Assembly (NCBI GenBank): GCA_963693305.1
Contig: OY855915.1
Coordinates: 15,595,784-15,659,783 of the forward strand
DNA: 64,000 nt
Direction: 5' to 3'
Source: Meandrina meandrites
Taxonomy: Eukaryota; Cnidaria; Anthozoa; Scleractinia; Meandrinidae
In this document: positions 2,116 to 49,119 of the stretch, piece after piece
How the letters are laid out: every line of letters starts with the position of its first letter
Position numbering within the stretch: position 1 is the stretch's first letter
Notes under the pieces: model-generated
Told to the model about the DNA's origin: nothing
Seen by the model: the letters and a program-made list of their open reading frames with translations, nothing else
The model's database searches: none
Position numbers and translations under genes: made by a program

Positions 2116-3077
2116 CTGTTCTTCCACGTATGGTGAGTCTGCAATCGAATTCGCAACCAGGAAACAAAATGTCGCTCTGCAGATATTTTCGAGATTTAAG
2201 AACCAGCCAACCCCGACAACGTGACCGTGTTATTTCATCTTCAAATGGAATCTCCTCCAAGACGTTCTTAACATCACTAAAAGGGATTGGTAAGTCCTCT
2301 AACTTTCTTTTGACGCTCTCCTTTGCCACCCATATCTGTTTAGAGTGAAAGCCCGTTTTAGTTTATCTTATGCTATTTACCCTCCTTATAACTGATCTAG
2401 GCTGATTGACTTTTGCCTATTTACTGAGTAGAAGACCTGTTTTACTGGCTTTAACCAGAATTAAAATAATCGTAAAAGAAAAGAAAAGTTAACTAAGGTT
2501 ACCGTTAGTTAACAACCAAAATTATCAACCTTACCTTACACCTAAGGTAATGATAACTAGGCGTCAGATATGTTAAGTCATATCTAGCAATGAATAAATT
2601 ATCCTCAGACGTCTTTTCGTAAAAATTCCGTTTGAATATATCCTCACGAAGATCCACTCGTTCTCTAAATGTTACTTTCCAGTAATTTTCACCCTCAGGC
2701 GATTGCAACTCTTCTGTTGCTTCATCAATGCTCCACGTTTCGTCGTCAACGTCCTCTATGAGGGGAAAACATGAAGAGTTACTTTATTTCTGATTGACGC
2801 GAGATGAATGCCTAAACTTTTCCGAAACAAACAGAACAGAAAAATTTGACACTGAACAACAACATCTCCCCAAGATGAGGAGAGAACAAGTTAAATTTGA
2901 ATTAAAATTACCTTCATCGGGTCCTCGAACAATGGAAGTTCCTAAATGACACCAAATGTCGGCCTTAGGGTTTTCCGTATTCTTCGTTTCATATTTAATC
3001 TTACGTAGCGAGTCCAGAGCGTCATTCACAAGATTTGACTGGTACTTGGAGTGATTCCACTTACTATTATAAGAGTC
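2116..3077 (-). CDS. Gene 1 exons 4-6: conserved module shared with gene 2
   Basis: Exons 3077-2912 (166 nt), 2755-2535 (221 nt) and 2335-2116 (220 nt) encode about 202 residues. Landmarks are ADIWCHLGT near the end of the first, NYWKVTF and RYDLTYLTPS in the second, and IPFSDVKNVLEEI, RSRCRGWLVL and FPGCEFDCRLTIRG in the third. The gene 2 counterparts are 163, 224 and 220 nt with the same phases. I do not recognise the domain; the aromatic and cysteine-rich conserved blocks suggest a folded globular unit. Confidence 0.75.
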
Positions 3078-6000: not shown

Positions 6001-7863
6001 GAAAAACCGGAACCAGGTGTATAAATGCGTTCCGAGAAATGAAATCCTGGGTAATAACCCTACAACGGACTAGTGCATATCTCACCAGTGGAGTGGGGGG
6101 AGAGAATTACTTCTCGTCATTTCATGCTAAGTACACCGGAGAAAAGTGCCGTCCTAATGACTTCAACGTACAGATTTTTTACATTACTAACGATTGTCTA
6201 ACATCGATAAAAAGAAGAGAGAATACAGTCATGCAGAAATGTCCGATAAGTGGTAAAGCATAAAGTTCTGCAAAAAACAAAACAAACAGACAAAAAACAA
6301 CGATAATTATTTAAAATAGAGAGACACAAGGAAGCATTCAACTGCCTGCCTTGTATATTGTTTAAACCAAATTGATTGCAAGGCTGGCACTACGGCAAAC
6401 TACCGGCGTGCAGTACGTATTGTCCGCCTTTCAATTAGCCTTGCCTCTCCGCTTATGTGTCTTTGTAGTATATTTATAAGGTAAAAGACTTTCATCATTT
6501 TCCGCGATAAAGTATCGGCACATTTTGAGTCAAAATTTTCGGCTCAAATTTCCCATCCAAATTGGCCAGGGTTTTGGTAAATATCTTTTCTCTCGGCTGC
6601 CAAAGTTTGTAAACTAACCAAATTCTTGGCAAGATCATTTCTTCCAAACTGCTTGGACGATGAAATGCCTTTGTTCTTAAACCATCGACATCCTTTCGAG
6701 ACTTGCTAAAACAGTTTAAAGCTGTGCAAGCTGATATTTGTGATCCGTGAATACAAACAAAACAGCAGTAGAGATCAAATCTCACAGAGATTCCCGCCAA
6801 ATCGGTTGGACGGAATGACGTCACAAATATGCTGCCAGGTTGCTGAGCAATATTTAAAATGGCGGCCACCAATATCGAATTTTGCGACATTTGGAGGCAA
6901 AATTTCTCAGGTTACAAGGCACTTTGGAACTTGAAACTTTGGTGAGTACCTAATTTGTATATGTACGTTTAAATTGTGGCGAGAAAAAAATATTTGCTTT
7001 TTGGAGTAGCCTTCTCTTTTAAGCTATTTTATGGGTACCAGTGAAGTGAAATGCGAACATTTACTGTATGTGCATTGAAAAGAAATAACTTATACACACC
7101 ACTATTTCTCCAATGTTCACTCTTGCATGCTGCCTTTGGTTTTCTTTACCATATGTTATGTACACTTCTCCTCCTTTGCGAGTTAAGCCTGCTTTTGTCT
7201 GTTTGCTTATTTCATTGAGTTTAACTCCCATCTTTCCAATTACTCTTCCTTTATATTCAGGTGGAATCTCTACTAGTTCCCACTTACTTATCTTTGCCTC
7301 TTCCTGTAGAGAAAACAAAAGGACAAAGTCAACGTACACTTTATATGCATGAAGCTAAAATTGAATGATTTTATTACATACAAAATTGATTGCCCATCTT
7401 TTCAGCGACTCATAATGAGACCAACCAGACTATGACAAAATGCATTCAACAATGCAAAGAAAGCTAAGGCCGCCTTCCTGCAAGTTGCACGGAAAGATGA
7501 CGTTATAGTTTGAGGGATTAATTTAGAAGCGTAATATGCGCTGGACAGAAAAAAATTGGCGGACTCGCACGATGGTCATTTGGGGTAAATTAAAACCTTA
7601 AAAATATTGATCATAGAAATAGATTAGAATGATGGCAGTCTATTAATGATAATTAACAATTAACTTACCACTGTGTTTAATATTAAAGTCTTCGCGGATT
7701 TTATCTGTTCTGCACTACCACTGACTGTGAACCCTTCTTCTTCTCTGCTATGTGAGTATATTTGTGCTCCAGATTGCTGCATTATTTCATTTATCTTACG
7801 TCCTTCCCTTCCGATAACACAGCCTTTCCAGTCTTTGGGAACCGGTACGAACACACTCTCCAT
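2116..7863 (-). CDS. Gene 1: two-KH-domain protein with a conserved module shared with the ROCO gene (3' end open)
   Basis: Six exons on the minus strand chain in frame: 7863-7669, 7303-7100, 5784-5599, 3077-2912, 2755-2535 and 2335-2116. Every junction has an AG acceptor and GT donor, and the phases are 0,0,0,1,0, ending open in phase 1. The product so far is about 397 residues. Residues 1-65 and 66-133 are KH domains with GREG and GKMG loops, a known single-stranded RNA/DNA-binding fold. Residues 134-195 are a linker. The rest matches gene 2 exons 2-4 closely, for example the tryptophan-cysteine-histidine motif WCHLGT and the block RSRCRGWLVL. ATG 7863 is chosen because an in-frame stop lies just upstream behind a TTTCAG acceptor, so upstream sequence would be 5' UTR. 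If the last donor is not used, the frame stops at 2096. Function is not known; RNA binding is inferred from the KH domains. Confidence 0.75.
4268..4292 (-). ncRNA. Hammerhead ribozyme core (left arm)
   Basis: On the minus strand the core reads CTGATGA, then AGGGG-TTAT-CCCC as a closed helix II, then GAAAC. This matches the conserved CUGANGA...GAAA core. Helices I and III and the cleavage site were not verified. Confidence 0.6.
5105..5129 (+). ncRNA. Hammerhead ribozyme core (right arm)
   Basis: On the plus strand CTGATGA, an AGGGG/CCCC helix II with a TTAT loop, and GAAAC follow in order. It is the inverted partner of the core at 4268-4292 with an identical helix II. Helices I and III were not verified. 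Confidence 0.6.
5209..5295 (+). repeat. tRNA-derived SINE head
   Basis: The sequence TGGTAGCGTAGTGG resembles a Pol III A box, and about 30 bases later GGTACGATTCT resembles a B box. The spacing is that of a tRNA-derived SINE promoter. The tail is not clearly defined. It lies just outside the hammerhead-bearing element in the intron between exons 3 and 4 of gene 1. Confidence 0.5.
5599..5784 (-). CDS. Gene 1 exon 3: linker
   Basis: This 186-nt exon was found by its TTACAG acceptor and AAAG|GTCCGT donor. It encodes 62 charged residues including KARCYIDGSYLPENC, with no recognised domain. It joins KH2 to the shared module in phase 0 on both sides. The plus-strand ORF overlapping it is a shadow. 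Confidence 0.65.
6816..6868. promoter_or_regulatory. CRE palindrome and YY1-like site inside a gene 1 intron
   Basis: A full cAMP-response-element palindrome TGACGTCA lies at 6816-6823 and an AAAATGGCGGCC (YY1-like) site at about 6857-6868, with a CpG-containing neighbourhood. Such pairs mark many animal core promoters. Here it sits in the intron between exons 2 and 3, so an internal or antisense promoter is possible but unproven. Confidence 0.3.
7100..7303 (-). CDS. Gene 1 exon 2: KH domain 2
   Basis: This 204-nt exon follows a CTACAG acceptor and ends at a GTG|GTGTGT donor, both in phase 0. It encodes VIGKMGVKLNEI with a GKMG loop and the usual helix-strand order of a second KH domain. Tandem KH domains usually act together to extend the bound nucleic-acid footprint; that is family knowledge. 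Confidence 0.8.
7669..7863 (-). CDS. Gene 1 exon 1: KH domain 1
   Basis: This 195-nt exon encodes 65 residues starting MESVFVPVPK. The KH signature is visible as hydrophobic strand, CVIGREGRKINEI with the GxxG loop, then a variable strand and a closing helix. The donor reads GTG|GTAAGT in phase 0. It is the presumed start exon of gene 1. Confidence 0.8.
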
Positions 7864-7903
7864 TGCCTCTTTTCGTTTCTTCTTGGTATTTGATCAAATT
7901 AAA

Positions 7904-17400: not shown

Positions 17401-17405
17401 AAATC

Positions 17406-20125: not shown

Positions 20126-20221
20126 CACCTCGCATTATATAAAAAAGTTTTCTCAATTAGAGAATAAATACCTTAGATTATATAATTAAATTTCAAAAAA
20201 TATTTTTTTCTATTATATGCA

Positions 20222-23200: not shown

Positions 23201-23718
23201 TCTCTGTCTATCAGCTGGCGAAGCTGCGGATGTTGGAATTTTATTACGACTTCCTTGACAGGTATTTTGACAGAAGAGATTTTGAGCTGATCCAGATGGA
23301 CACGGACAGCAACTACATAGCCATCTGTGGTGAGCGACTCGAGGACATTGTTCGTCCGGAGCTGAAAACAGAATTCGAGGCGCAAAAAAAGCAGTGGCTG
23401 GCCTGGGACAAGTGGAGCGGTGAGGGCAGCCGGATGATTGCGCTCTGCTCAAAATGCTATTTCATTGATGACCAGGGCGAAAAAAAGAAGTTTAGCACAA
23501 AGGGGATGTCGAAGAAGCAAAACGAGATAACCTGGCAGCGTTTCAAGGCAACGTTGGTGCAAGGAAAAAAGGATATGGAAACAAACAGAGGCTTCAGAAT
23601 GCGGGATGGAAAAATGGTCACTTGCTAGCAGCAGAAGCTGGGGTTGAGCGCTTATTATGACAAACGATGGGTGCTGCCCGACGGGATACACACCGAACCA
23701 ATCGAATTTCACATTTAG
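20222..23718 (+). pseudogene. Protein-primed family B DNA polymerase (Polinton pPolB), decayed
   Basis: The first 220 codons (from ATG 20222) are an acidic N-terminal region. After frame breaks near 20900 and 21201 come a zinc finger (CVHCNARFTKACNLQRHAERC region, 21336-21395) and the exonuclease and polymerase domains. Visible motifs are LYDFEAY (Exo I), VGFNSGTYDLN (Exo II), YNNLDV (Exo III), GYDANSLYL (Pol A) and MDTDSNY (Pol C). Pol motif B is missing; the sequence jumps from YLRDTGR to QVGISVYQLAKL at about 23150-23195. Premature stops lie at 21579, about 22400, about 23016 and 23626, with a frameshift near 22260. The C-terminus ends at the stop near 23716. Intact relatives replicate the element from a protein primer. 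This copy cannot make active enzyme. Confidence 0.8.
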
Positions 23719-24316: not shown

Positions 24317-24757
24317 TTAGGTTACTTCCTCCGCATGCCAGACACAGACGATAGTCACACACTACGCCTGCCTCACAACTGCGACATGGGCCTGGCATTT
24401 TTTTTTACTGTCTTTAGTTGATAGTTGTGCTTCGCGCATAACTCCCCGACACACCTCTTTCCGCAGTTTTCTTTCCGACTTAACATTAACCACCCGCAGT
24501 TGTTTTTTCCGCGCACCATTTTTATTTATATAACCTTGGTTGCGGTTGTTTTCAATTGACCCACCTTGCCAGTAGTAATATCGGAGTCTATCAAATATCC
24601 GCTTTTGGGTTGAGAGTGCGTTCGCGTGCTTTAATCCCCTCCGCCACCAAAATACCCTGCGACTTTTGGAGCTGGGTATTTTGGGGGTGGGGTGTTTAAA
24701 AATTGCGAACGCACCTCTCAACCCAAAACGGTATTTGATAGACTCCGATATTACTAC
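24317..24757. repeat. Polinton right terminal inverted repeat
   Basis: Inverted copy of 19598-20043. The outermost palindrome is 24572-24757. The copy of the small zinc-protein ORF here is frameshifted by an extra A at about 24400-24409. Confidence 0.8.
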
Positions 24758-24764
24758 TAAGAGA

Positions 24765-24870
24765 GAAAAATCCACCTTTTATAAATCCGTCTTTTGCAAA
24801 TCCACCTTTTACAAATTCACCTTTTACAAATCAGTGTTTTACAAATCCACCTTTTACAAGTCCAGTCCAT
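24765..24870. repeat. Minisatellite, unit about ACAAATCCACCTTTT
   Basis: About seven imperfect copies of a 15-bp unit lie directly beside the Polinton target duplication. The same array, with the same order of variants, recurs at 27451-27560. Confidence 0.8.
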
Positions 24871-24876
24871 GTTTTG

Positions 24877-25278
24877 CACTCCTTGTCCAAATTACGTTCC
24901 GAGAAGCACTGCACAACTCGGATTCAGGCCAGAAATGGAGACATTCTTCTTCCTTGCAACCTTCTGCACGATGTTTATCACGGAACTCGACGGCACTTCC
25001 TTGAAAGCAAACTGGGCAAATCACACTCATTTTATAACTCATATGTTTCAGCCAACAGAACTGATTACGCATGCACTCAAGAATCAAGCTTAACTGCCTA
25101 CAAATAGCACGGGTGCAAGTAAAACTAGCGGTATTACAGTCAAAATCCGTCGACAGCGTGATGTTTGGTTGTGAATCTGCCATCGACTCAACATTGCAAT
25201 TCCCTCTGTGATAAACAACCTCAACGGAAGACGAATGGCATAGGAGAATCACAGAACAGTCTTCATCCCCAGATATAT
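24877..25278 (-). pseudogene. Duplicated ROCO gene fragment, 3' part
   Basis: This segment is a near copy of gene 2 at about 31708-32109, covering the cysteine-rich tail (SVICPVC, GCKEEECLHFW). Scattered substitutions distinguish it from the parent. It starts abruptly beside the minisatellite and ends at CAGATATAT, where a LINE has inserted. The other half continues at 26835. It lacks promoter, GTPase and death domain, so it is a pseudogene. Confidence 0.85.
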
Positions 25279-26832: not shown

Positions 26833-26834
26833 GA

Positions 26835-27176: not shown

Positions 27177-27443
27177 CCACCCGCAGTTGTTTTTTCCGCG
27201 CACCATTTTTATTTATATAACCTTGGTTGCGGTTGTTTTCAATTGACCCACCTTGCCAGTAGTAATATCGGAGTCTATCAAATATCCGCTTTTGGGTTGA
27301 GAGTGCGTTCGCTGCTTTAATCCCCTCCGCCACCAAAATACCCTGCGACTTTTGGAGCTGGGTATTTTGGGGGTGGGGTGTTTAAAAATTGCGAACGCAC
27401 CTCTCAACCCAAAACGGTATTTGATAGACTCCGATATTACTAC
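27177..27443. repeat. Extra Polinton end (solo inner TIR plus terminal palindrome)
   Basis: Matches 24490-24757 and is followed by TAAGAGA (27444-27450) and the same minisatellite. It is a second copy of the Polinton right end together with its flank, so it cannot be an independent insertion at a new target. Confidence 0.85.
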
Positions 27444-27450
27444 TAAGAGA

Positions 27451-27560
27451 GAAAAATCCACCTTTTACAAATCCGTCTTTTGCAAATCCACCTTTTACAA
27501 ATTCACCTTTTACAAATCAGTGTTTTACAAATCCACCTTTTACAAGTCCAGTCCATGTTT
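27451..27560. repeat. Second copy of the minisatellite flank
   Basis: Same 15-bp-unit array as 24765-24870 with the same internal variants. After GTCCAGTCCATGTTTT the two copies diverge: the first enters ROCO sequence and this one continues into unrelated flank with CCACTCCACTCC repeats. Confidence 0.8.
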
Positions 27561-27599
27561 TACAAATCCACTCCACTCCACTCCAGTCCTTGTTTTACA

Positions 27600-28855
27600 A
27601 TATGCCCTCTTGACAAATCTTTTAATCTTTTAAAGGGATAGTTGCATTTCAAGAACTTCTTATAAATAGAATCCCAAAATCAAAACTGCTAAGATTCTGT
27701 AGACGCTTTTCAGTATTAAATCAACCCAATCAAGCAATGACGGCACAGATTTCAGTCTTGCATGCAAATTGTCATTCGATGTCATGTTTACGCAAAACTC
27801 AATTCCCTAGCGAAAAAATGAATAGTAAACAAAACCAAAACGGACACTGAAGGAATATGTGGAGACAGAATTTTAATATATTCAAGTAAACATTACATTT
27901 GCCGTTAGCAGCAAAAAACTTTCAATTTTCTTGCGTGTATGACATGCAATAATTTTAGTGAGTGTCGCTTGGTATTGATTCCTTTGAGCGAAAATATAAA
28001 TGTTATTTGATTTGGGATGAAATCATCGGTTAAACAATTGCTATAAACAAAAGCAACACTTAAAGGTAGCATTTACCCGACCGTGGCATTCTCGTAAGTC
28101 AAGAAAACTCCATTTGAAGTCAGTAGTTCGCTTTTGATTTTCCTGTCTATCTTCAGAAATCAAAGGACTCCAAAGCCGAAAGATTATCTCATCGCTTTGA
28201 AGACCTTGATGTTCATTTTTTTGCGGTCGAGTATTCTGTAGGGTATTCTCTTTCCATTTACAGTTCCATAAAGGTGTATTTATCGTAAAAGGAGTGAATG
28301 AGCACATTGAAAATTTTAACAGCGAGCCGTGTGGATGCCATTTTGGCCATTTGCTCTCTAGCAAGGAGAGAGAGACTGGGGACCAGTTTGGAAGAAGAAC
28401 AATACAACCCAAATATGGAGTGTTTACTTACACCCAAATATGGTTAAAAAAAGTCCCTCACGCTGAAGTTGAGATTTTTTCTGGTATCTGTGGTATACGC
28501 GCAGCTCTATGATTCTGCCGCCTCGTCAGCCTCGCCTCTTGGCTCGGCTGCCTCGTTGGCAATCATACATTTTAATACCACTGAATTTCGTCAGTGAAAA
28601 AAAAAATATAAGAAACGACGAATGAAAACGTGTGTCAGATATGTGCGAGACCCTGTTGTATAATAATGTAATGTACGTGAAAGTAACAGTAAAATCATGT
28701 GAAATGCTACATCTGTGATCTTTTTTATAAGGAACTTTGTAATTTTAAAGAATAAACTAAAATCAGTCGATATGTAAAAGTACACACAGTGAGATTTGGT
28801 GTCTAGCTACTGCACTTTTTTCTGATACTTTTCTTAATGTTTTCTTACAGGTAGT
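27600..28855. other. No gene seen; 3' flank of gene 2
   Basis: The ORFs here (for example 28041-28412, minus) show no domain and no supporting splice structure. The stretch lies between the duplicated Polinton end and the presumed polyadenylation site of gene 2. Confidence 0.4.
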
Positions 28856-29078: not shown

Positions 29079-29608
29079 TCATAGATGATCGGCTATAACA
29101 GGTAGGCCACATTCAACATTTAACAATTCATAAAGCTGTCCAACAGTTATGTTATACCGACTTGCAATATAACCCAACATAGCATCTGCTGGGTTCAGAG
29201 TGCGTTTGTCAAGGAAACGAATCTCCTCTGGAGTCAAGCCAAATTTCTCAGCAACCAGCTGCCACTCATCTCCGCCTATATGAACCAAAATACGATTAAT
29301 AAAGTTACAATAAAATACAGTTCATAGTACGAGTAATAAATCAACGTAAACTGGGATGTCGCGTCTAAAGAGCCATTGTGAGGCCACCGAACTCCATAAA
29401 AGTTACGCATTCCAGTGAGAAAGAAAAGCCATGCCAAACTACCAAAGAGACGGCTGTGGTCAACCAAGGAAACGAATTTGAAATTTTACGTTGTGAAACT
29501 ACAAAAAAATTAACATCTTAATAATCTTACCACTTAAAGAGATGGTTAGCTTTCTTCTCTGTTCAAAAGGGATTTTTAGAACATCAAGACTTTCGGATAA
29601 CAATGGAC
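29079..29608 (-). CDS. Gene 2 exons 10-11: death domain
   Basis: Exon 29608-29531 (78 nt) and exon 29275-29079 (197 nt including stop) encode about 90 residues. The pattern PFEQRRKLTISLSG then GGDEWQLVAEKFGLTPEEI and LLNVECGLPVIADHL fits the six-helix death domain: the W after D/E, LAEK/VAEKFG, and a final helix ending in Leu/Ile residues. Death domains self-associate and recruit adaptors or caspases. The split at a Gly codon in phase 1 is supported by consensus splice sites on both sides. Confidence 0.8.
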
Positions 29609-32600
29609 CTGGAAAGGAAAGAAATTTGAGTATTGTTAAAAAGAAACAGAACAGAGTATTCTTGTCACAACTGCGACGCTGAAACGTGCCGTGTTCTCCC
29701 AAGTGTTATTACTTATGGACACCAATACACTTCGGCAACCTTTTCCAATAGTAATCATAGGCAGCGCTGTAAGTTAAGGTGTCCAAAAACAGTGACACGA
29801 ATACACGTAAAGTTAACGTTTGCGGTTTGTATGATTCACAGCCACAATTCGTTTTACTCTGAATTGCTGGGGCACTCCCACCACCTCCCCCCTTCACTGA
29901 TGACATAACACAAAGTGTTTTACTAGGCACCGAAGAGGAAGAGGAAGATGCAAGTATGGATGACACGAAGCGAAGTGTCCCGTCTAATTGCAGCTGCAGT
30001 GGGGCAAAAATCTTTCTAATAACGTTTAAGTTCGTGCTTTCTTTGACACTACTTACTTTCTTTTCAACTCCTGTAAAAGAAATTCATTGCACAAATACCT
30101 GCAAATGGAATAGATTTTTATAGTTTCCTGGGCAAAGCTATTTCAGAAGTAGCGTGTTTGTTGCACGCAATTTGATCCATGAGGCGATTGCTCACTTGAT
30201 TACAGCCAAGCATAATCATTCACTTTATTCACAACGTAAAAATTGCCAAAGAGTGTATCATCAGGAGTTCCTGTTCAATATTTATTATAGTCTCAATTGC
30301 CACCATGCCCGGCCATTAATAAGAGTCGGGCAGCAAAAGCTTTTTCCGAGAACAACAGACTGGCTGGCTCTTCTTGAACTGAAACTCTGTTGACGAGAAT
30401 GCTCCGTTACTAGACACCATACTAGTTCTTCTCTTAGTGGCTTGGCCGACTTGCCGGCCGAGTGGTAGCACAGGATTAACCACCGAGAAATCAAATTTCT
30501 GCAGGGTGATTTACGAACTGGGCTCGCCCTACGTCTGTAATAAACTCACCAGTAGTCCCAGCCGGAACAATGCCTCTCAAATGTTTGACCACATCAAGCC
30601 TTTCTAAAGATTTAGCCCTCCTTGCCAAGCAACGAACCAAGACCTTGGTTTGGACATCAGGCTCTTTCAAAGTGGCTTTGTCATGGTGAAGAGTCTTTTC
30701 CAGCTGACATACCACCTCCCTGCAATCACTTGCCTCTGATAAAAGCAATTCTTGGACCACACCAGGGAGAGCGAGCGTGTTTTCATCACTTGCTGTAAAG
30801 GAAAAAAATAATACTCTCTATTTTTTAAGGTTCTAGTTGGCTAGCTTGCACTAAGATCTTTAGCCTTTGCGTTTCAGAGTGGAGTGGATGTCGCCTATTT
30901 TAGCACAAAGTGACTAGACTACTGTTTCGCATATGTTCAGGGACAATTATTTACTTTCATTTTTTTACGCTGATGGAAACATTGAGGACAAAAAGTGAGA
31001 GGACCTGTTAAGGTATTCTGTGGCATAGTAACGCTTCACAGCTGAGTATTTATTTTTTGCAGTTAGTAAGGGCTGTAATATCAAGACTGGTGTAGTGCCT
31101 AATTAGACTGTCTTTTTGGAAATTTACAGTGGTTACAGAAATAGACAATTTGACTAAGGAAAGACACTTACCTTCTTCCAAAGACGAAAGTCTCCCAACG
31201 TGTTTACCAAGTCTTAACTATCACATATAAACAGGAATAATATTAAAAAATTGTGCAGTTCTACATTTTTAAACCTGACACTACTCACAACGAGACTTAC
31301 TGCAACAATGGATATAAAATTTCTGCGCATGATGAATCATGTAATTGCTATCATCAGACCATGTCTAATATATGCTTTTGCCCGTTGCAAACTCTCGGAT
31401 CGTAGGAAAACCGACAACAAGGAAGTGTTATTCTTTTTGTCTTGCCTAAAGTTATTTTGCTTCTTTAAGAAAGTCCAAGAACCTAACTCAGGCTATACAA
31501 AATCATTATTAAGCATTAGATTCATTATTGACTTTTTATATTCATTAAAATAACGAGGAATACTTTTATAATTCGTTCAACAACAACACTTTTAAGTGAA
31601 GCAGCGCTTTCTCAAATATACATAAAAATACATTTACCTGTTCACCCCGAAATGTAAACCAGGCGGTCCAGTACTTAGCAGGAACCCTTATATTCTGGGC
31701 AGAAACACTCCTTGTGCAAATTACGTTCTGAGAAGCACTGCACAACTCGGATTCAGACCAGAAATGGAGACATTCTTCTTCCTTGCAACCTTTTGCACCA
31801 TGTTTATCACAGAACTCAACGGCACCTCCTTGACAGCAAACTGGGCAAATGACACTCATTTTATATCTCATATGTTTCAGCCAACAGAACTGATTACGCA
31901 TGCACTCAAGAATCAAGCTTAACTGCCTACAAACAGCACGGGTGCAAGTAAAACTAGCAGTGTTACAGTCAAAATCCGTCGACAGCGTCATATTTGGCTG
32001 TGAATCTGCCATCGACTCAACATTGCAATTCCCTCTGTGATAAACAACCTCAACGGAAGACGAACGGCATACAAGAATCACAGAGCAGTCTTCATTCCCA
32101 GATATATGAAACCTAGCAAGGCCGCGGTACAGCTTTGGGCTCTCTGGCCGCCAAAATTCTTTCCTCCCCCATTCATGGAACTGAAGCACCAGTCGGGGAA
32201 ACAGGCCTGGAGGAACTTGACCAGTGTCAAATTTGAAAAAGAGAGAGGGAGTTTGTGCAGATGCTACTAACTTCGTGATGGCCTCAGGTGGATGTGACTT
32301 CAACATGGATGGCACTAGGTATTGCTTGGTGCAAGATACATCTGGCAAGGGCAAAGGACACAGCAAGCTGAATTTCTCCATGATTGCAATGAAGCTTTCA
32401 GATGTTTCTTTGTTACGAATCAAAGGTTCCCAAACATGTTCTAAAAGCTTTTCCTCCAAGATTCCTTCTCTCTCAAGCTTACACCATAGGTTCAAAAACT
32501 CTTTCTCTTTACAGTCGTAGGGCCTGACTGTAATCACCTTCTTGAACACATCAATCAGCCATTGAGGATCCAAGACCACCACATTATTGAGCTCTGGAGT

Positions 32601-35600
32601 GTCATTAAAATGGATCAAAATTCGAAGATCATGCAAGAAGTTTAACAATGTTAGGATCTCATTATCTTTGTTAATGCTGCACACTTCGGATGCAATGTGC
32701 CTAGCTTGTGCAAGAGAAAGACATTTATGCCCTCCTTTCTTTGCTATTTGAAGAGCCTTCTCATATCTTAACCACTTGACTGGGATAACTTCATTGATGT
32801 GCGGTAGCTCCTTGGCAACATCAAGTACTGCTTCTCGCAGACGCATGACTTCTCTGCATTCGAATTCACTGCCCGACTTGGTGTTATCGACAACAAACAC
32901 GTCAGACAATCGAGGACCGTATGGCTTGTTTTTTAGGGAACCAAATATCTCGATAGCTAGTTCCCAAGGATCGCGACCATCGTGAGGTTCGTCAGCATGA
33001 GTGCACACTAAGAATACTGACGGAAGTCTATTTGCCAACGCTCCAGTTTCACGGACTACATCAGTGCTTTCATCCTGTCTGGCTAAGGAAGCCACAGAAG
33101 ACATCCAAAAATCTAAATAATCCAAATTCTTTTTCAGATTGAAGCTGTCTTCAAATTTCTTGTATACTCCTTGCTTCACCAATGGTTTGGCGTTGTCATA
33201 TGGATTTTGGCTCAGGTCATAAACCAGACAGTAGATGGCTCTTGCTGTGAGAAAGAGTGGATGTGTTACATAGTAGACCGATTGACCCGCAAAATCCCAC
33301 AAAATTGAATAAATGGCATTCTCGTTTTCTAAGACATCATCTTGGAGTAACTTTTCAGTTATTTCAGCTATATCTTCAAAATCTGGCACTTTTGTGGTGA
33401 TAAGAGCATCGCTTTCTTGACTCAATTTGTTTGTATCAGGTTCCTCTCCTGCTTGTAAATGAGTCTCATCTATGATGTCGATGGGTGTTGGATCTTCTGG
33501 CGTGTCAGTCAGACCTGGACCTGGGCCTCCTGATGACTCACTGAGTCTTGCTGCCATTAGCATATCGGTGATTTCATAATCAAAGCTTCTTGTACTATCA
33601 ACAGCTGCTCTTTTGCGCTCAGTAACGCTTTCTTCTTCCTTCAATCTTTCCGCCACCAATCGTGCTGCATTATGCTCAAATGAAATGCCTGCTGTAACAG
33701 ACTTTTCTTCTTCATTCTTCTTTCCCGTCATCCAAACCTCGGTGGTCACTTTAAAATCGTAACGATCCACATCGATGCCCACAGTGCTGTCTTCCTCTGG
33801 ATTAAACCGTATCCCTTTCAACGACTTCTTTAAGCTGGTCTTTCCGGACCGGGCTTGCCCAATCAACATCAATGGTACCCTCTTGACACACGTTTTACCT
33901 TCAGCCAGGGCATTGTTATAGGCTTCCAATGCTAAAGGACCCCGTGCAAGAATCTCTGGAGGAACTGTGACAAATTAACAAATAACAACAGCGACGCTTA
34001 CACAAACAATATGCTATAAATCTCAAACATTGTCTATATCTAGGAAGAGAGGTAAATAACGATACTACTTAAATCCCGTGTGAGGCTACAGAACACAGCA
34101 TGCATTTACATAATTGTTTTAAAATAAAAGTTTTTCTTTGCTCACTTTTTCTTGTCGTTTCATTTCTCTTCATTTCATGAACAACCAAGCCTTGAACTTC
34201 TTTTACAAACCGGAGAAACTCAGGTAGTTTCGCAAGTATGACCTGTGGTTCCCAGTGTCCGCTACTCAGTAGTTTGTCCCACTCTTTGCAATGTAAATGG
34301 AGGTCAGTCTGCAATAAAAAGAAGAGAAGCCAGTGCAGAGCTTTTCATCTTGGCACAAGCGTAAATAATGTTAGACATAAGCAATCATTAACAAAAACAC
34401 GACACTTTTTAGTTTCGGCAGATGCATCTGTCATTTTCAGTGCGATTTGAACAAGGTGAAGAAAAAAGTATAAATAGTAAGAAAATTATAATAATAATAG
34501 TTATAATTAGGGAAGTAAAAATAGTGCCAAAAATTCAAACAGAAAGTTTTCAATTAACATGATGGACTTGTGCATTACGTGTTGGTTTCTCCCGACGGAT
34601 ATGAAGCGCTTCTTTGATTTTGCGTGCATACAAGGTCTCAAAGAAGCGCTTTGGGAGAAACCAACACTTAATGCATAAAGTCCATCACGTTAATTGAAAA
34701 CTTTCTGTTCAAATTTTTGTCACTATTGTTACTGTTCTAATTATTACTATTATTATTGTAATTTTCTTACTATTTATACTTTTTTCTTCACCTTGTTCAA
34801 ATCGCACTGAAGATGGCAGATGCATCTGCCGAAACATGTTCGCGAAACTAAAAAGTGTCGTGTTTTTTCTTACAATTTGTTTCTTCGCTGCTCTTATCTA
34901 GACATAAGCAATCATGTCAAGGACCGCCAATGAATGAACCGATGTAGAGATCAGTACCGACCAGGAAGGCCATATTTTTTCACGATAGATAAGAGAGGCT
35001 CTTAACATTGGGTGACATCACTCTTCCATTAACCGTAAAAAAATAGAACTATTTATCCTTGTGTGACATGTGACTTTTTCTGGGGAGTTTTTCCTTACGT
35101 ATGTACTCAGGTTACGCGAAAATCAAGGCCGCAGCTGGTTGTAACAGCCGCATCAGAGCACTTGCCTCAGTCGGTAAAAGTCTTGAAATAATCATTTTTT
35201 TCCCGTTCCTGTGAGAAGCTATCCATTACAAGTAAGTTAGTAAGCAAAAGAAAGAAGTGGGTTTTTTCTGATATTGCCTAAAAATAGCATTTTGGGGTTT
35301 GTACATTTTGAACTTTGACCCGCTAGCAGCTAACGTCTTCGGCGCTTCGCAAATGCCTCGGTTATCAGAAAAGTCTGGCTGCGCTGGACATGACTAAACT
35401 TTAAGAGCTTTGCGTGATCAGAAATGGGTCAACAAAACACCAAGCTAAAAAAGCCTACTTTAGCCTCTATACCCCCTTCGAATGACATATATATGGCCTA
35501 GGATAAGTTTTGAAAGTTTCAATTTAACTTTACTGGTGACAAGGATGCTTATTTCTTATAACTTCCCGCCAAAACTATCTTTACGCTACAATATTCCGCG

Positions 35601-38600: not shown

Positions 38601-41600
38601 GTTTTTATGCATTTTTTGGCGATTTGATGCGCGCGAGAACAGTTCTGTGAGTTTAAGTTTTCGACTTGTTTACGGCAGAATATTATTTACACAAACAAAC
38701 ACACACGTTGGATGATAAGCTTATGATAACGTCAAACGTCACCTGTTTGTCCACGAATGGTAAGTCTGCAATCAAATTCGCAGCCAGGAAATAAAATGTT
38801 GGCCTGCAAATATCTTCGCGAGGGAAGAACAAGCCAACCTCGGCATCGTGACCGTGTTAGTTCATCTTCAAAGTGAATCTCTTCCAGTATGTTTTTGACG
38901 TCACTAAACGGGATTGGTATGCCCTCCAACTTTTTCTTGGCGTTCTCCTTTGCTACCCACACCTTTAAGTTAAGATGATAAATTTACGTTTTCCGCCACA
39001 TCGCCCTCAAAATTTTCCCGTCTTGTGTATGATTTGAATTTAAAGGCGATTATTTTTAGCAAACAAATTCAACAGCACATGCAAGTTCCTTTCAGTTGAA
39101 AGGCGCTTTATGACCCAAACTGGCTTGAGTATTTAAGCCTTAAACTGGAAGCACCAAAATTCAAACTAACTACAGACACTACAACTTTCAAGACTGCACA
39201 GCAAAACTTTTTAACTCCTTACCACATGGAATAAGACCCGAATCTGATATCTTAAATTTATAGGCATGACGAAACAATTTCTCTCATCCGTGTGCTACTA
39301 TCTCGCGCGGTCTTGTTAATTGTTTTTATAAATAGGATTAGCATTACTGTTATTACTACTTCATGTATATAGTTGTTAATAGCTAGGATTAGTCGGAATT
39401 AGTAATTAATTAGTAACAAGTTCTACTATAATTTAGTTAGAATTAGTAGGTGAAGAGCCACCAAGTGGAAATACTACTAATTAAGTCGTTATTGTCATTC
39501 ATGAACTGCCTATGTCTCAGTGTTATATATTTTTCTAAAAATAGTCCCTTAAAAGCGCTTCCAAGGGAACACAGAAATGCATCTTATTGAAAGCAAATCA
39601 AAATAGCTAAAACTTTGTGAAAGCTTGTTAATAAAACCGGGCCCAACTGCAGATCAGCTTACCTTACACCTTAATTCATAATTACATGGAGATAGATATG
39701 TTAAGTCATATCTAGTGGCATATTCAGTATATTCCTCTGGTGTCTCTTCGCAATGATGTCCTTTAAATATATCCTCGACGAAATCAACTCCTTCTTTGAA
39801 TGCAACTTTCCAGTGATTTCCTTCCGCCGATGGCTGAAACTTTGCGGTTGCCTCTTCGATGCTCCACTCTCCCTTAGCAGCTTCCTCTGTGAGAGATAAC
39901 AGAACTTTATTAACTCAGCTATCATGACAACTCTCCGTTCTAGTCTAATGTTGAAGTTGATTACCTCCTAAGAAGATCATTTCTGATTTGGTGTTCAGTT
40001 TCCCGAAAATGGCGAACCCATACAGTCAAAACATAAATTTTTTATTTTTATTTTTTATTCTTAACCAGACACTAAAAAAACACTATAAAATATATCCGGT
40101 TAAATTAATTAGTTAATTAATTAATTAATTAATTATTCTTGTGAAGGGGGTAAAGGGTGGGAAGTACCTGACTGTGTGCACTAGGTAAAAGGTAGAGTGT
40201 ATCTACGTTACTTTAGTATGAAGAGCACAAAGGCTATATATTTGATTCTGGAAACTCTTTGCTTTCATTGTGGTACTGTTCTTCCTCGCGGAAACTTTGC
40301 CCTATGCGCAGAAATAAAACTACGTTACATACTTGAGCTCACGAACGTCTCATGCTTTCCTCTGCGGTAGACTATCGTTAACAAGGAATCAGGGGGTGGG
40401 GAATCTTTAAAATGGGGAATCTTTAAAAGCGAGAATCTTTAAAATGAAGAATCTTTATAGGCGGGCATCAGCCGCGGTAGAACACAGACAACCAGCATCT
40501 TTTAGTAAGATGAACGAGCAATTTCTGAGAGAACGGTACCTTACCTTTGTATGTGTAAACAAGGGAAGCCAAATAGATGTTTGTAAAGATGGGCGAGATT
40601 GTAGAGCAAGTTGTCAACAAAAACTAATATGGACTGTTTATTTAAATCAAATTTACAGCTGCCACATGGCTTGGGTATTGACAACGTGCGGGCCAACAAG
40701 TCATGAGACTTGTTAATCTGAATAGCACACTGATTAGCCTTAATAGCTCTCTGGTTAGCCTAAACAGTACTCCAGTAAGCCTGAGTATAGGTAGCTTATG
40801 TGGCTTGAGGTTAGGCTATATATTTATTGGGTTAGGAATTTCTGGCTTGTATGGCACTTATGTGTCATGAAACATGCGAGCCATGCGAGCCATTCCAGTT
40901 AAGGTGATTCCTCGGTATTGCATTGCGCATTCCTTCTGCGCAGAATTTTACGCGTGATTAGCGCGCACATGAACAAAATAGCGGCTTTTTTCTATACGGC
41001 TTGGCTCGTGAAAGAGATATATCGTCGTTTTCTCGTAAACAAGCATGGTGACCTATATTTTTGATTGCAGAATTTTGATGTGTAAATTGTCCTCTTTGAG
41101 ATGGATAATTTAAAAAAAAATTCATCGGGAAAAAAAAAAGATATAGCTGAATGCGTGAACAAAATCGTTACTCGAGGACGCAAATTATGACCTTGAAAAC
41201 AACGAACCGAGGAACGTTTTGATGTGATGTGGTTTCGATTTGTTTGAATTTTTTCATAAGATGTATATAGCATTGTTCCTTATGCTTGGGACTTTCTACC
41301 TATCGAGTTTTTTCCTGAGTATTACTGTAATAAACTTTACTTCCTGCTACCGTAAAATGTAATGTTGACCGATGAAATAACGCGCGCGATTAGTACCAGA
41401 ATAAATAAGGTAGGTCTGGCCCATTATATCTCTCTTGCGAGCATGGTGACCTATCCTTTTTAATGTATTTTTCGAAACAGTGCTTGTTAGGGAAAATGCT
41501 GCGAAAGTTTCAAAAAAATCGATCGGGCAGTTTTATGTCTGAGGAATCACCTTAACCTACAGAAGATTTCAGTTAGCCTAAAATAGCACTCCAGTTAGCC

Positions 41601-44600
41601 TTAAAAGCACTTTGCCTGTTGCCAAACAGTCAACTCACAGCCGATCAAGTTTACTGGAGTGAAGGATAAACCACTGTTAAAGGCTACACCGAAGGAAAGA
41701 AAGAAATTGATCTTTGCTGATAATTTATATAATTTATTGGCGGTGTTGGAGTAACGCTTACAACGAAACTGCCGTGTTTCGTCTCCGATATTGAGGCCTC
41801 CCGATATTATTGAGATGTGTTATATAATAGGTATTGTTAGGACTGTGCATGTGCAGTTACACGTGTTGCTCGATGGCTCAGATTAAAGAAGTGAGTTGTG
41901 TTTCAGACTCTGTGGACTGTCCGGTTACAACAAGGTGGTTTGAAAGCTTTCCCTGCAGAATTTTCAAGCCTTCTCCAAACGTGAGGTAATAAACCTAAAT
42001 GTATGCACTAAACAAAGTCTAGCTATTTTATTGTGAGAATCTGTTGATACTTCAGTTATGAACGAATTTTAAATTGTGTCGGTTTTCAGATCTTCCCGTA
42101 AATATTTTTAATGCAATTATAAATGCTGCTTTCAAATCTGGTGTTGGAGTAAGACGTACAAGGAGTAGCGTTTTCGTTTCCGATATTATTGTGCTGGTTT
42201 GAAATTTTTGCCCTGCAGAATTTACAAGCCTTCTCCAAACTTGAGGTAACAAACGTAAATGTATATATGCACTAAGCATAAGTTTGATTTTATTGTGAGA
42301 ATCTGTTTATACTATATTTCATTTATGAACGAATTTGAAGTAGTGTCGGTTTTCAGATCTTCCCGTAAATTTTATGCTGCTTACAAACCTGTTCATGTTT
42401 GTACATTTTATACGGGCATCGTTTATTAAATATTTCGTTTAGACTAATTGTTTTGTGTTTTAGTTAGTGGAGTTAGCTGTGATGTTCATTATTATATTTT
42501 GAAAACAATCAAAATCACGATTTCGCTTTGTAATTTGCAAACTACACGTACGTACAGAAAAATCCTGCAAATAAAAACGAGTAAAACTACTCAGCGATAA
42601 TGCACACCAAAATATCATGATTTAAGCGATCTATTATCAAACCGCTATTTTTTATACTCGCTTGCATCTGTTTTGTTTCTCTTATCAGTGAGTGTGTTGA
42701 AATCTTGTATGCGTGATTTTAGATGCGTAAACCAATATTTCGCCGATTTCGTTGTGACTTAATACCTGTGCTTGGCTGAGTGAGTTCAGACTTTACTTTC
42801 CGCATATTTGCTTACCAGAAATGAAGAAAATTGAATCAGTTCTCTGCATAATAAATAATTCTCTAAAGAATTGAGCAACGCGTACGATAAAACAGAATCA
42901 AGTTAATCATGCAACCAAACCACAACGAAAAGAATACGGTTCAAAACAACATTGTAAGCTTATTCTAAGTTACACAAAATCTGCTTTAAAATGACTCACA
43001 TAACCGGCACCATCATTACAGAGTTTGTTTTGCCGCCGTGATTTTCTTACTTTGCCGTGGCGTGAGTTCATTTTGTTTACTGTGTTGACAAGTGAGTTCA
43101 CTTTGTTTTTCTGTATTTTGTTTTTGCCTTGAGTTGATTTTTTGCCCTAACTGTTTTGAAGTGAATAAAAACAAGGTCAAGGCCCTTTTTACATTGAATA
43201 ACTCATAGAGGCGTGTTGATGAGTGTAGAGTAAACGTTCTAAAACGTTTAACTAGGATTTGTTGTGTGCACCTATGTGCGTACGTGAGAAACCCAATAAA
43301 GTGCACTCGTCCATTTCAATTTTAGAACTCAAGCAATAAAAGTCAGAAGGGTTAACCTCGAAATGGGCCACTGTATAAGCTTGGAAATAGTGCGGCTACT
43401 TATTTGGTAACACTGTGATTAACTCGAGCAAAAAAATAAATAAATAAATAAATGGGAGCTTCACTTTTAGGCCTGCCTAAATCTATATATTATTACAATG
43501 GCCAAGCGCAAAGAGTGTGTGGGGCTAGCAACAAGCCGCATGTTCCATTTCTAAATTACTGGCAAGAAAATGTTGTTCGCATTGTTTTACTTGAATGTAA
43601 AGCAGTAAAACTAATGTTACCTTCACCAGGTCCCCGGAAAATGGCCGTTCCGAAATGACACCACATATCGGCTTCCAGATAATCGTTTTCTTCCCTTTCA
43701 CTTTTGAGCTTGTGGAGCGATTCCAAAGCCGCACGCTCGAGTTCTACTAAATAGCTTGGGTCATTGTCAAAGATAAAAGATTCCTAAGAAAAACCAAATT
43801 CACATCGTTTGATTAGCGCATTAGGTTTTATTCCCTCTGAAAGTCACTGGAGACCTCGGGAAGCACGTTAAAGCAAATCCAGGAATAGCGTGAATTTTTA
43901 ATTTGTTAATTTCTAACTTTTTATTGAGGGTTTCTGTTAATATTTTATGTCTTGCATGTAGATTTGGCGTCGACTAAGTTCAAACTCGACAAAATATCAA
44001 AAACGAAAAACGCTGTTTAATGGAGAAAGAAAGACGGTTAAGAGTCATTGTCTGAGAAAGTGTTCCAGATGTTGGAAATCGGGGTCAACCGGTTTTGCTG
44101 AAAAGTGCTGCAGAAGATGGCCTTGATGAGATATTCCAAAAGCCATTTCGGTTTTGTTTTCTGACTTCTACTTTAAAAGTTCCAGGGGGGGGGGGGGGGG
44201 GGGTCCTATATCGAGCCTCCGGGTCATGGAAAATCCTGTATTTGATGGGGTAACTTTGGCCTAGTATAACAATAAACACTAAACCTATTGACTAATGACT
44301 TGCATCTTGTGTTTCTTCTATAAAGCCTCTTTCATCTCTTTTGTGCAGAGTTGGCATAGAACGTTCTGGCTGTGTGGGGCCTGGCCGAAGTTTTGGTCAA
44401 ATTTGACCAAAATTGCACTACCCAAAATTGCCAAATTTTAGAAGTTCATATTTTTTAACTGCCTAACTGGCTAAAATTGATACTTATATCAGGAGTTACC
44501 CCAATGTTAGTAGAATAAAAATCAGTTGAGAAAAAATTGGCCCATGTATTTATAAGTTGCATTAAAGACCCATTTTGAAGCACACCATCACCAAATTTGC

Positions 44601-45159
44601 ATATTGTCAAAAGCAATAGTTTAATGAACATGCTAGCTTTATTTTTATTTTAACACTTCTATTTGCCTTGGCGAGGCTAAATGTCTTTAAGCAATCTGTA
44701 ATTAGCGGCAATTTGATGTATTAACACTTTCTTAGACTCTTAAATTGCCCTAGAATTAGAAAATCAATACTGACAACACAACATTTTGTTTCACTAAAAC
44801 GTAAATATGCATACACTGTAGCCCGCAAGGACTTAAATTGTATTTGAATGGTGTACTATATCAATACATACACCTCTTCCGAACATCTCCATGCTTACTT
44901 AAACTTACCGAGTGTATAAAAGGGTCTTTAGAGGTTAAAAGGTTAAAGGTTCGTCTGAGAGAAAATGTCCATATTTCTGAAAATCTTGTGAGGAGAACCG
45001 TCGTACGGCCAAATCATATTGCTTGGTGATCTGGTCATTCTGCATTTGTTTAGTAGAGTTTACAATAGACCGATATGGTGGAGAAAGGTTCTGAAGCCGC
45101 TCAGCTCTTTGCCCTCCTTGCCATTTTGGCGTACTCGTGCCTGTTTGTTTATCCGCCAT
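29079..45159 (-). CDS. Gene 2: ROCO (Roc-COR) GTPase with C-terminal death domain
   Basis: Eleven exons join in one frame: 45159-45064, 43783-43621, 39886-39663, 38962-38743, 36567-36308, 34308-34146, 33964-31638, 31217-31172, 30792-30550, 29608-29531 and 29275-29079. They give about 1338 residues and a stop. Order: short N-terminus, the module shared with gene 1 (about 33-235), a further conserved block (about 236-375), Roc GTPase, COR dimerisation region, a cysteine-rich segment, a helical linker and a death domain (about 1248-1338). ROCO proteins are GTP-regulated dimers, and death domains recruit partners in apoptosis or innate immune signalling, so a cytosolic signalling scaffold is likely. 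No kinase domain is seen. Introns host a hammerhead element, a hairpin and a MITE. Exon 1 is the least certain. The specific partner is unknown. Confidence 0.8.
30550..31217 (-). CDS. Gene 2 exons 8-9: helical linker
   Basis: A 46-nt exon (31217-31172, LGKHVGRLSSLEE) with a GATAG acceptor and AAG|GTAAGT donor restores the phase needed by the next exon (30792-30550). The latter encodes a mostly helical stretch with VVQELLLSEASDCREVV and VQTKVLVRCLARRAKSLERL, ending ACTG|GTGAGT. It connects the COR/cysteine-rich region to the death domain. No named domain is recognised. Confidence 0.7.
31638..33964 (-). CDS. Gene 2 exon 7: Roc GTPase, COR and cysteine-rich region
   Basis: This 2327-nt exon begins PPEILARGPLALEAYNNAL, a lead-in seen before many Roc domains. 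The P-loop is GQARSGKTS (about residue 411), switch I has DSTVGID, G3 is WDFAGQ (about 598) and G4 is CTHAD (about 696). About 150 acidic, low-complexity residues separate switch I and G3, much longer than the usual few tens. COR follows (LTLLNFLHDLRILIHF, VVLDPQWLIDVFKKV). The C-terminal part is rich in Cys and His (SVICPVCCQGG, GCKEEECLHFW), suggesting zinc binding. A 740-bp piece of this exon is duplicated at 24877-27176. An open frame continues past the donor to 31566 but the CAG|GTAAAT donor and downstream phases favour splicing. Confidence 0.9.
34146..34308 (-). CDS. Gene 2 exon 6
   Basis: This 163-nt exon follows TTTTTATTGCAG and ends AAAA|GTGAGC (phase 0 to phase 1). It encodes a helical stretch with HCKEWDKLLSSGHWEP and ends in a basic segment. 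It leads directly into the region preceding the Roc domain. Confidence 0.7.
34389..34898. mobile_element. Inverted-repeat element with hammerhead motif and 17-bp target duplication
   Basis: Two arms of roughly 210 bp (from about 34399 and up to about 34861) are inverted copies. TAGACATAAGCAATCAT occurs at 34372-34388 and again at 34899-34915, a perfect 17-bp target duplication. A hammerhead-like core lies in the right arm and a degenerate version in the left. Such a long duplication is unlike cut-and-paste MITEs and fits target-primed retrotransposition, as in Penelope-like elements. It lies in the intron between gene 2 exons 5 and 6. Confidence 0.7.
34807..34835 (+). ncRNA. Hammerhead ribozyme core in the 34.4-kb element
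   Basis: CTGAAGA, then a helix II formed by GGCAGA-TGCA-TCTGCC, then GAAAC. This satisfies the CUGANGA...GAAA core. The left-arm copy (34412-34440, minus) reads CTGAAAA and has one helix mismatch, so it is probably inactive. Helices I and III were not verified. Confidence 0.55.
36308..43783 (-). CDS. Gene 2 exons 2-5: shared module plus conserved block
   Basis: Exons 43783-43621 (163 nt), 39886-39663 (224 nt) and 38962-38743 (220 nt) are the counterparts of gene 1 exons 4-6. Conserved strings are MWCHFGT, RYDLTYLSP, YELRCK, WVAKENAKKKLEGIPIPFSD and RSRCRGWLVLPSR. Exon 36567-36308 (260 nt) adds DYVPKEDVRRVLSQYL and GFHLIHKRSSRRTVY and ends at TCG|GTAATA. All phases agree (0,1,0,1,0). Function is not recognised. 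The position directly before a Roc domain is where other ROCO proteins carry LRR or ankyrin repeats, so this may be the sensing or adaptor part. Confidence 0.75.
37607..37699. repeat. 93-bp perfect hairpin
   Basis: Two 44-base arms starting GATACCCTGCGAGCAGAGTC are exact complements around a GGAAA loop. CCTCC occurs immediately on both sides, a possible 5-bp target duplication. It sits in the intron between gene 2 exons 4 and 5. The perfect identity indicates a young or conserved foldback MITE. Confidence 0.8.
40696..41612. repeat. Minisatellite (AGTACTCCAGTTAGCCT-like) split by a MITE
   Basis: Units of about 20-25 bp with (C)AGTTAGCCTAAA and GCACTCCAGT occur at 40696-40790 and again at 41561-41612. 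The MITE at 40903-41551 lies between the two parts. Unit divergence is considerable. Confidence 0.5.
40903..41551. mobile_element. TTAA-flanked MITE
   Basis: The ends GGTGATTCCTC (40903) and GAGGAATCACC (ending 41551) are exact inverted repeats, and TTAA lies on both sides (40899-40902 and 41552-41555). TTAA target choice is typical of piggyBac-type transposases. There is no coding capacity. It sits in the intron between gene 2 exons 2 and 3. Confidence 0.7.
41955..42395. repeat. Tandem duplication, about 260-bp period
   Basis: A block containing CAAGCCTTCTCCAAAC, TTATTGTGAGAATCTGTT and GTCGGTTTTCAGATCTTCCC occurs twice in the same orientation, about 260 bp apart, with small indels. It lies in the long intron of gene 2. 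No coding potential. Confidence 0.65.
44185..44203 (+). repeat. Uninterrupted 19-base G tract
   Basis: Poly-G of 19 bases in the first intron of gene 2. It has G-quadruplex potential on the plus strand and C-rich i-motif potential on the other. Confidence 0.85.
45064..45159 (-). CDS. Gene 2 putative exon 1
   Basis: ATG at 45159 sits in CCAAAATGGCGG, a good translation-start context. The 32 codons (MADKQTGTSTPKWQGG onward) end at ATT|GTAAAC in phase 0, matching the phase-0 acceptor of the next exon at 43783. No KH exon like those of gene 1 was found upstream. An unspliced continuation to 44935 is the alternative. Confidence 0.45.
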
Positions 45160-49103: not shown

Positions 49104-49119
49104 ATCTGTTATAAAAACA

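What the first reader, a model, noticed from the sequence alone, without database searches (positions are those of the whole stretch)
2116..45159. A three-exon module shared between a KH-domain gene and a ROCO-death-domain gene
Gene 1 exons of 166, 221 and 220 nt and gene 2 exons of 163, 224 and 220 nt encode closely similar protein with the same splice phases (0,1,0,1). In gene 1 they follow two KH domains. In gene 2 they precede Roc-COR and a death domain. Gene 1 is open in phase 1 at the window edge, exactly the phase gene 2 uses to continue towards Roc. Gene 1 may therefore be a KH-Roc-COR protein, linking nucleic-acid binding to a GTPase signalling scaffold.
Basis: partly seen in the sequence, partly recalled or inferred. 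Interest (0 to 1): 0.8.

Follow-up and report, generated by a model that had tools for sequence, protein, structure and literature searches.

The report
Coral RNA-sensor-like ROCO death proteins
Two neighbouring coral genes belong to one unusual family in which RNA-binding KH domains and a tunnel-shaped domain resembling known readers of RNA 5'-triphosphate ends are fused to a GTPase switch and a death domain, so they look like candidate sensors of viral RNA.

The parts
7669..7863 (-). gene 1 exon: start Met and KH domain 1 (GXXG loop G-R-E-G)
   Evidence: translation; Pfam KH_1; aligns with residues 1-65 of P0027 at 74%
7100..7303 (-). gene 1 exon: KH domain 2 (GXXG loop G-K-M-G)
   Evidence: 74% to P0027
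5599..5784 (-). gene 1 exon: linker strands between KH2 and the barrel domain (YIDGSYLPENCKLKLE region)
   Evidence: 70% to P0027
2912..3077 (-). gene 1 exon, module part 1 (first barrel strand, KADIWCHLG)
2535..2755 (-). gene 1 exon, module part 2 (RYDLTY and RCKIWV strands)
2116..2335 (-). gene 1 exon, module part 3 (DCRLTIR strand); last exon seen, donor GTATGA, exits in phase 1
43621..43783 (-). gene 2 exon, module part 1
39663..39886 (-). gene 2 exon, module part 2
38743..38962 (-). gene 2 exon, module part 3
   Evidence: 84% to P0023; the matching part of relatives lies within the modelled fold
34146..34308 (-). gene 2 exon, module part 5 (last barrel strand, TDLHLHC, and C-terminal helices)
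31638..33964 (-). gene 2 large exon: Roc GTPase (P-loop GQARSGKTS, WDFAGQ, CTHAD), COR-A, and a conserved Cys/His cluster CPVC...C..H...C...C.H
   Evidence: Pfam Roc 7e-15, COR-A 4.3e-21; LRRK2 and bacterial Roco PDB matches
31172..31217 (-). gene 2 short exon (46 nt) keeping the frame
   Evidence: phase 0 in, phase 1 out; LRLGKHVGRLSSLEE resembles LRLGTHDGRLSTLEE of P0023
30550..30792 (-). gene 2 exon, helical region before the death domain
   Evidence: 69% to P0023
29924..30070 (-). gene 2 exon, tentative; no match to relatives in this stretch
   Evidence: phase fits with a weak donor GTAAAA; no hit here
29531..29608 (-). gene 2 exon, start of the death-domain region
29079..29275 (-). gene 2 last exon: Death domain and stop
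   Evidence: Pfam Death 23.1 bits, cut-off 22.6; 65% to P0027

Best explanation
Genes 1 and 2 are paralogues of one stony-coral gene family whose full layout is KH-KH-[tunnel domain]-Roc-COR-Death. The 'three-exon module' is the N-terminal part of a roughly 330-residue domain encoded by five exons, with the fold of the tunnel (TTM / Cet1-like) RNA 5'-triphosphatases and of RESC1/RESC2. Proposed mechanism: (1) KH domains hold single-stranded RNA [KH domains and GXXG loops shown by sequence; binding inferred]. (2) The tunnel domain receives the RNA's 5'-triphosphate and reads rather than removes it, because conserved basic residues are kept while the catalytic metal ligands of Cet1 are replaced [fold shown by prediction on relatives; residue register and binding inferred]. 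(3) Ligand binding switches the Roc-COR GTPase [Roc/COR shown by sequence; switching inferred]. (4) The C-terminal Death domain, or in two relatives a GT4-conflict glycosyltransferase, carries out a cell-death or defence response [domains shown; output inferred]. It would thus work like RIG-I, telling foreign uncapped RNA from self, with unrelated parts.
Against: No sequence-level link to Cet1 or RESC: the module profile finds neither among PDB sequences at E up to 10, and Pfam is silent. Foldseek TM-scores are moderate (0.51-0.59 by the target's length for 8cdp). The residue register is my inference from motif order and spacing; no coordinates were at hand. The two models share one set of sequences, so they are not independent. 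Several members have lost some of the tunnel residues (P0006, P0019, P0020, P0030, P0035, P0037). Free-standing KH-tunnel proteins exist (12 of the 22 hits have KH and run to the end of the module without reaching Roc), so the domain need not act through Roc. KH exons are not found for gene 2, nor Roc exons for gene 1, inside the window. No expression or infection data were examined.
Confidence: 0.55

Rival explanations
1. Active enzyme: the tunnel domain is a working RNA 5'-triphosphatase (or inorganic polyphosphatase) with an altered metal site, in which D269, H273, D518, H520 and H522 replace the glutamates, and it disarms foreign RNA or makes a signal instead of merely binding.
For: Tunnel fold; the substituted positions are Asp/His, which can bind metals, and are well conserved (D269 31/33, H273 30/33, D518 26/31, H520 27/32, H522 25/30).
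Against: A near-invariant Trp (32/34) stands where, by inferred register, Cet1 has E307; point changes at any of the three Cet1 metal residues inactivate the enzyme (PMC10201420).
Confidence: 0.15
2. Generic RNA-binding scaffold: the KH-tunnel part binds cellular RNA or another protein for housekeeping regulation and the ROCO/death fusion has no immune role.
For: Free-standing KH-tunnel proteins form separate branches; KH domains are common in ordinary RNA regulators (general knowledge).
Confidence: 0.25
3. Gene 1 itself is a truncated or free-standing KH-module gene (ends near 2096 or after the fifth module exon) and only relatives carry Roc-COR.
For: 12 of 22 hits have KH and the module to its end without Roc (that search admits only about 218-695 aa and so cannot return full ROCO proteins); no further exon is visible in 1-2115; in gene 1's own clade P0006 ends after the module, and the clade lies weakly supported among free-standing lineages.
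Against: Closest relative found is full length at 76% identity; three of six clade mates reach Roc; a stop at 2096 would leave part of a barrel. In gene 2 the matching intron is 2,175 bases long, so the next exon may simply lie outside the window.
Confidence: 0.2
4. The long KH-ROCO relatives are gene-model artefacts that fuse neighbouring genes of a tandem array.
For: They are predicted proteins; paralogues seem to lie close together in several contigs.
Against: The fusion recurs in Oculina, Stylophora, Acropora, Montipora and Porites models; in all nine the join has the form (I/V)P..I.ARG; gene 2 shows module and Roc joined in phase in raw DNA. P0037, a 955-aa open frame on a 3,207-base contig, spans what are four exons and three introns here and so may come from a transcript.
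Confidence: 0.07

Closest known systems
ROCO proteins with Death domain (LRRK/DAPK superfamily; 'AP-GTPase' of Burroughs and Aravind)
   Same: Roc-COR tandem with P-loop, DxxG and THAD motifs; C-terminal Death domain
   Different: N-terminal sensor is KH-KH plus a tunnel domain instead of the leucine-rich, ankyrin or kinase parts I recall for known ROCO proteins; the one KH domain mentioned in PMC8195603 is in a different protein, NCOA6 (passages)
RESC1-RESC2, trypanosome guide-RNA 5'-end binders (PDB 8cdp, 8fn4, 8fn6)
   Same: Best structural match; RESC2 binds 5'-triphosphate RNA in a tunnel judged non-catalytic (PMC10201420)
   Different: No sequence similarity detected; kinetoplastid mitochondrial editing factors without KH-Roc-Death fusion that I know of
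Cet1/Pct1 tunnel RNA 5'-triphosphatases and giant-virus capping triphosphatases
   Different: ExE metal motif replaced by D-x-W; [quoted passage not shown]
RIG-I-like receptors
   Same: Proposed logic: RNA 5'-triphosphate recognition joined to a death-fold signalling domain
   Different: No helicase or CARD domain among the families found in 37 members; unrelated parts. Hexacorallian RLRs group with MDA5/LGP2 and Nematostella did not respond to 5'-ppp (PMC8476169)
GT4-conflict proteins of corals (Burroughs and Aravind 2021)
   Same: Two relatives (P0028 Porites, P0032 Stylophora) carry PF20706 at the C-terminal end
   Different: P0028 joins it to KH-tunnel-Roc-COR, P0032 (whose model starts inside the module) to tunnel-Roc-COR; this window's gene 2 has Death

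Membership tests
ROCO | Roc domain directly followed by COR | tested here: met
   Pfam Roc 55.8 bits (cut-off 27) and COR-A 75.8 bits (35.3) in gene 2 exon 33964-31638
ROCO | Roc/COR in gene 1 | not testable with these tools
   gene 1 runs off the window; inferred from P0027
KH type I | KH domain with GXXG loop | tested here: met
   gene 1: KH_1 3.5e-22, two stretches; loops GREG and GKMG
Death domain | Pfam Death above cut-off | tested here: met
   23.1 versus 22.6 bits on the last 64 residues of gene 2 scanned alone; 6 of 37 family members at E 0.01; P0027 and P0030 fall just below the cut-off (21.0, 19.8 bits)
tunnel (TTM/Cet1-like) fold | tunnel-forming beta barrel of the Cet1/RESC kind | tested here: met
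Cet1-like RNA triphosphatase (enzyme) | three metal-binding acidic residues (E305, E307, E496 in Cet1) | tested here: not met
   D269, W271 and H522 at the corresponding places by inferred register; no ExE in the first barrel strand of the consensus
Cet1-like RNA triphosphatase (enzyme) | phosphate release from 5'-ppp RNA | not testable with these tools
   needs protein
RESC1/RESC2 | sequence homology within the kinetoplastid family | tested here: not met
   module profile against PDB sequences finds no RESC chain at E up to 10
RESC2-like 5'-ppp binder | four basic residues near the gamma-phosphate | tested here: inconclusive
   five well conserved basic strand residues, but their place in the tunnel is inferred
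RIG-I-like receptor | DExD/H helicase domain | tested here: not met
   no helicase-core family among those matched by genes 1-2 or by 37 members at E 0.01

The most novel reading that the evidence does not exclude
Stony corals evolved a class of cytosolic RNA receptor unrelated to RIG-I: KH domains plus a catalytically dead RNA-triphosphatase tunnel capture 5'-triphosphate RNA and fire a Roc-COR GTPase switch ending in a Death domain or a glycosyltransferase effector. This would be a capping enzyme fold turned into an immune sensor, filling the 5'-ppp gap suggested by cnidarian RLRs.
Probability: 0.35. Interest if true: 0.92.

Novelty: new variant of a known kind. Interest (0 to 1): 0.74.

Why it matters
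How cnidarians recognise uncapped viral RNA is open: hexacorallian RIG-I-like receptors group with MDA5/LGP2 and Nematostella did not react to 5'-triphosphate RNA (PMC8476169, passages read). A coral receptor family that combines an RNA 5'-triphosphate-binding fold with a GTPase/death chassis would answer it with parts that I have not seen described together. It would also put a tunnel RNA-triphosphatase fold into an animal receptor, and show convergence with trypanosome RESC2 on a dead tunnel used as a reader. All steps can be tested with purified protein and labelled RNA.

Tried and rejected
Rejected: gene 2 exon 1 at 45159 (frame stops before the donor tried; KH sequence in its place in P0023). 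A possible extra gene 1 exon near 3324-3151 (open frame, but its exit phase does not fit the phase-0 exon at 3077; sequence, phase argued by eye). First guess for a 41-nt exon (stop in frame), replaced by the 46-nt exon 31217-31172. Module as a known Pfam family: none above cut-off; as a PDB family by sequence: two chance-level hits only.

Looked for and not found: KH exons of gene 2 in 43784-64000 (best E 0.11) and later exons of gene 1 in 1-2115 (best E 0.17); the module in viral contigs (none of 19 pattern matches); in bacterial/archaeal contigs one 24-residue match among 9 pattern matches, in a Clostridia bin, taken as chance and not followed. None of the 109 further proteins listed carries the module, but this says little: only 9 of the 109 have 250 or more residues before the P-loop, 93 are 760-880 aa long and look like the single Roc-COR exon, and 8 of the 128 hits were not listed. 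PADLOC: no match for four family members. All species named are Scleractinia; the module was not seen in sea anemones or other animals, but the searches need shared 5-residue words and each admits one range of lengths, so absence is not shown.

Literature: ten searches, of which I saw the listed rows only (at most 20 of 156, 258 and 1,563; 8 of 11). No listed title or abstract start names a KH-ROCO or KH-tunnel protein; 'triphosphate tunnel' with 'death domain' gave 0 papers, 'GT4-conflict' with 'coral' 0. Searches were poorly aimed: none of their listed papers holds the tunnel terms. The library is open-access only, so this is not proof that nothing is in print. Papers seen: PMC8195603 passages; PMC10201420 outline, abstract, passages and section 19; PMC8476169 passages. 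The rest: listings.
Full report
What is in the window. The window is animal DNA with introns and transposable elements. The named database hits to both genes are all from stony corals (17 of 22 and 14 of 15 carry a name, and the ten species are Scleractinia; the other 5 and 1 carry no name), so the window is very probably from a stony coral. Gene 1 lies on the minus strand with exons 7863-7669, 7303-7100, 5784-5599, 3077-2912, 2755-2535 and 2335-2116; gene 2 lies on the minus strand from 43783 to 29079. Pfam finds two KH domains in gene 1, and Roc, COR-A and Death in gene 2.

The two genes are one kind. A search with gene 1's module region, which admits proteins of about 218-695 aa, gave 22 proteins; 12 of them have KH and run to the end of the module without reaching Roc. 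A search with gene 2, which admits longer proteins, gave 15. Nine of these 15 carry KH, Roc and COR together by precomputed Pfam (P0023, P0025, P0026, P0027, P0028, P0030, P0031, P0033, P0036); a tenth, P0035, has ankyrin repeats, KH and COR; the other five (P0024, P0029, P0032, P0034, P0037) show no KH by Pfam, four of them because the model begins inside the module, while P0029 begins with a KH-like stretch. Gene 1 matches P0027 of Oculina patagonica from the start methionine at 76% over 395 residues, against 58% for the next best. P0027 goes on through Roc and COR to a death domain (its Death match, 21.0 bits, is just under Pfam's 22.6 cut-off). Gene 2 matches P0023 of the same species at 80% over 1,224 residues, and P0023 begins with two KH domains. 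In a tree of the module (36 rows; P0021, P0032 and P0037 dropped as too short) gene 1 falls in a 100/100 clade with P0027, P0036, P0034 (all reaching Roc) and P0006, P0008, P0022 (not reaching it), gene 2 with P0023 and P0007 (support 80/71). Eleven KH-module proteins without Roc (P0001-P0005, P0009, P0010, P0012-P0014, P0016) lie on other branches of the larger group that holds gene 1; that group and its inner order are weakly supported (80/83, 85/84). I therefore read the KH versus ROCO difference as an effect of the window: gene 1 is cut off on its 3' side, and gene 2's KH exons are either lost or lie beyond 64000, behind a stretch rich in transposable elements. Neither was seen: no KH match in 43784-64000 and no later exon in 1-2115.

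Reader or enzyme. PMC10201420 (passages, section 19) reports that Cet1 holds its metal with E305, E307 and E496 and the gamma-phosphate with R393, K409, K456 and R458, and that RESC2 has lost two of three metal residues yet binds 5'-triphosphate RNA, with K311 and R402 indispensable among four basic residues. In the coral family (37 rows, gaps left out) the strand residues R340 (34/35), K356 (30/35), R422 (35/35), R481 (32/34) and R485 (33/34) are well conserved. R340 and K356 are 16 apart, as are Cet1 R393 and K409; H479 and R481 are 2 apart, as are K456 and R458. On the first barrel strand, D269 (31/33) and W271 (32/34) stand where the two glutamates should be, and on the last strand D518-L-H520-L-H522 stands where E496 should be. 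The register is inferred from motif order and spacing, not from superposed coordinates. The pattern, phosphate side kept and metal side changed, is that of RESC2. Several members have lost some of these residues (P0006, P0019, P0020, P0030, P0035, P0037), so not every paralogue need bind triphosphate. Gene 2 has every residue named here; gene 1 has all those that its visible exons cover.

What it probably does. Roc keeps its P-loop, DxxG and THAD motifs in gene 2 and in nearly all of ten long relatives looked at (P0035 lacks the P-loop pattern). The Death domain passes Pfam's cut-off in gene 2. In two relatives, P0028 (Porites) and P0032 (Stylophora), the C-terminal end is a GT4-conflict glycosyltransferase, a domain that Burroughs and Aravind describe as a predicted effector of conflict systems and as expanded in Acropora (PMC8195603 passages). 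The most economical reading is a receptor: KH domains and a dead triphosphatase tunnel for uncapped RNA, a GTPase switch, a death or glycosyltransferase output. Nematostella did not react to 5'-triphosphate and hexacorallian RIG-I-like receptors group with MDA5/LGP2 (PMC8476169 passages), so there is room for another sensor. That corals use this family for it is my inference. My rough weights: shared family and layout 0.9, tunnel fold 0.9, gene 1 itself reaching Roc-COR 0.8, 5'-triphosphate reading 0.5, immune role given that 0.7.

What is weak. The long relatives are gene models. Open frames on short contigs from unnamed sources (for example P0037, 955 residues on a 3,207-base contig, spanning four exons and three introns of gene 2) suggest transcripts but were not proved to be. 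Taxonomic limits are unknown, because the protein search needs shared short words. The window's own genome could not be reached.

Noticed in passing
window 27175-26840 and 25276-24875, minus strand: A second, partial copy of gene 2's COR region (83% and 77% to P0023), split by a reverse-transcriptase element (RVT_1 ORF 26843-26133): a duplicated gene fragment broken by a retroelement.
   Followed up: partly
window 24579-25004 and 27301-27633, plus strand: Nearly identical open frames with a short repeated STFYKSVFYK-type stretch flank the broken COR copy, as if a larger segment had been duplicated around it.
   Followed up: no
window 47820-49133, minus strand, and 49054-49668, plus strand: Retroelement ORF with RVT_1 plus GIY-YIG, Penelope-like from recall, next to an inverted partial copy of itself.
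   Followed up: partly
window 55007-59121 and 59737-63482, plus strand: An LTR-type retroelement (RT, RNase H, integrase) and a LINE-like element (endonuclease, zf-RVT) fill much of the region upstream of gene 2.
   Followed up: partly
window 20186-23628, plus strand, GC about 0.46-0.48: A run of open frames in a GC-richer island that look to me, from recall, like a large DNA transposon with a type-B DNA polymerase; Pfam gave no match for the three tested.
   Followed up: no
gene 2 exon 33964-31638, near its 3' end: A conserved CPVC...C..H...C...C.H cluster after COR, present with small changes in all 11 long relatives aligned, possibly a zinc site not described by Pfam.
   Followed up: partly
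P0038, P0039, P0049, P0055, P0063: Some coral ROCO proteins carry kinase or TPR families beside Roc-COR in their precomputed Pfam lists, so partner shuffling seems general in the superfamily.
   Followed up: no
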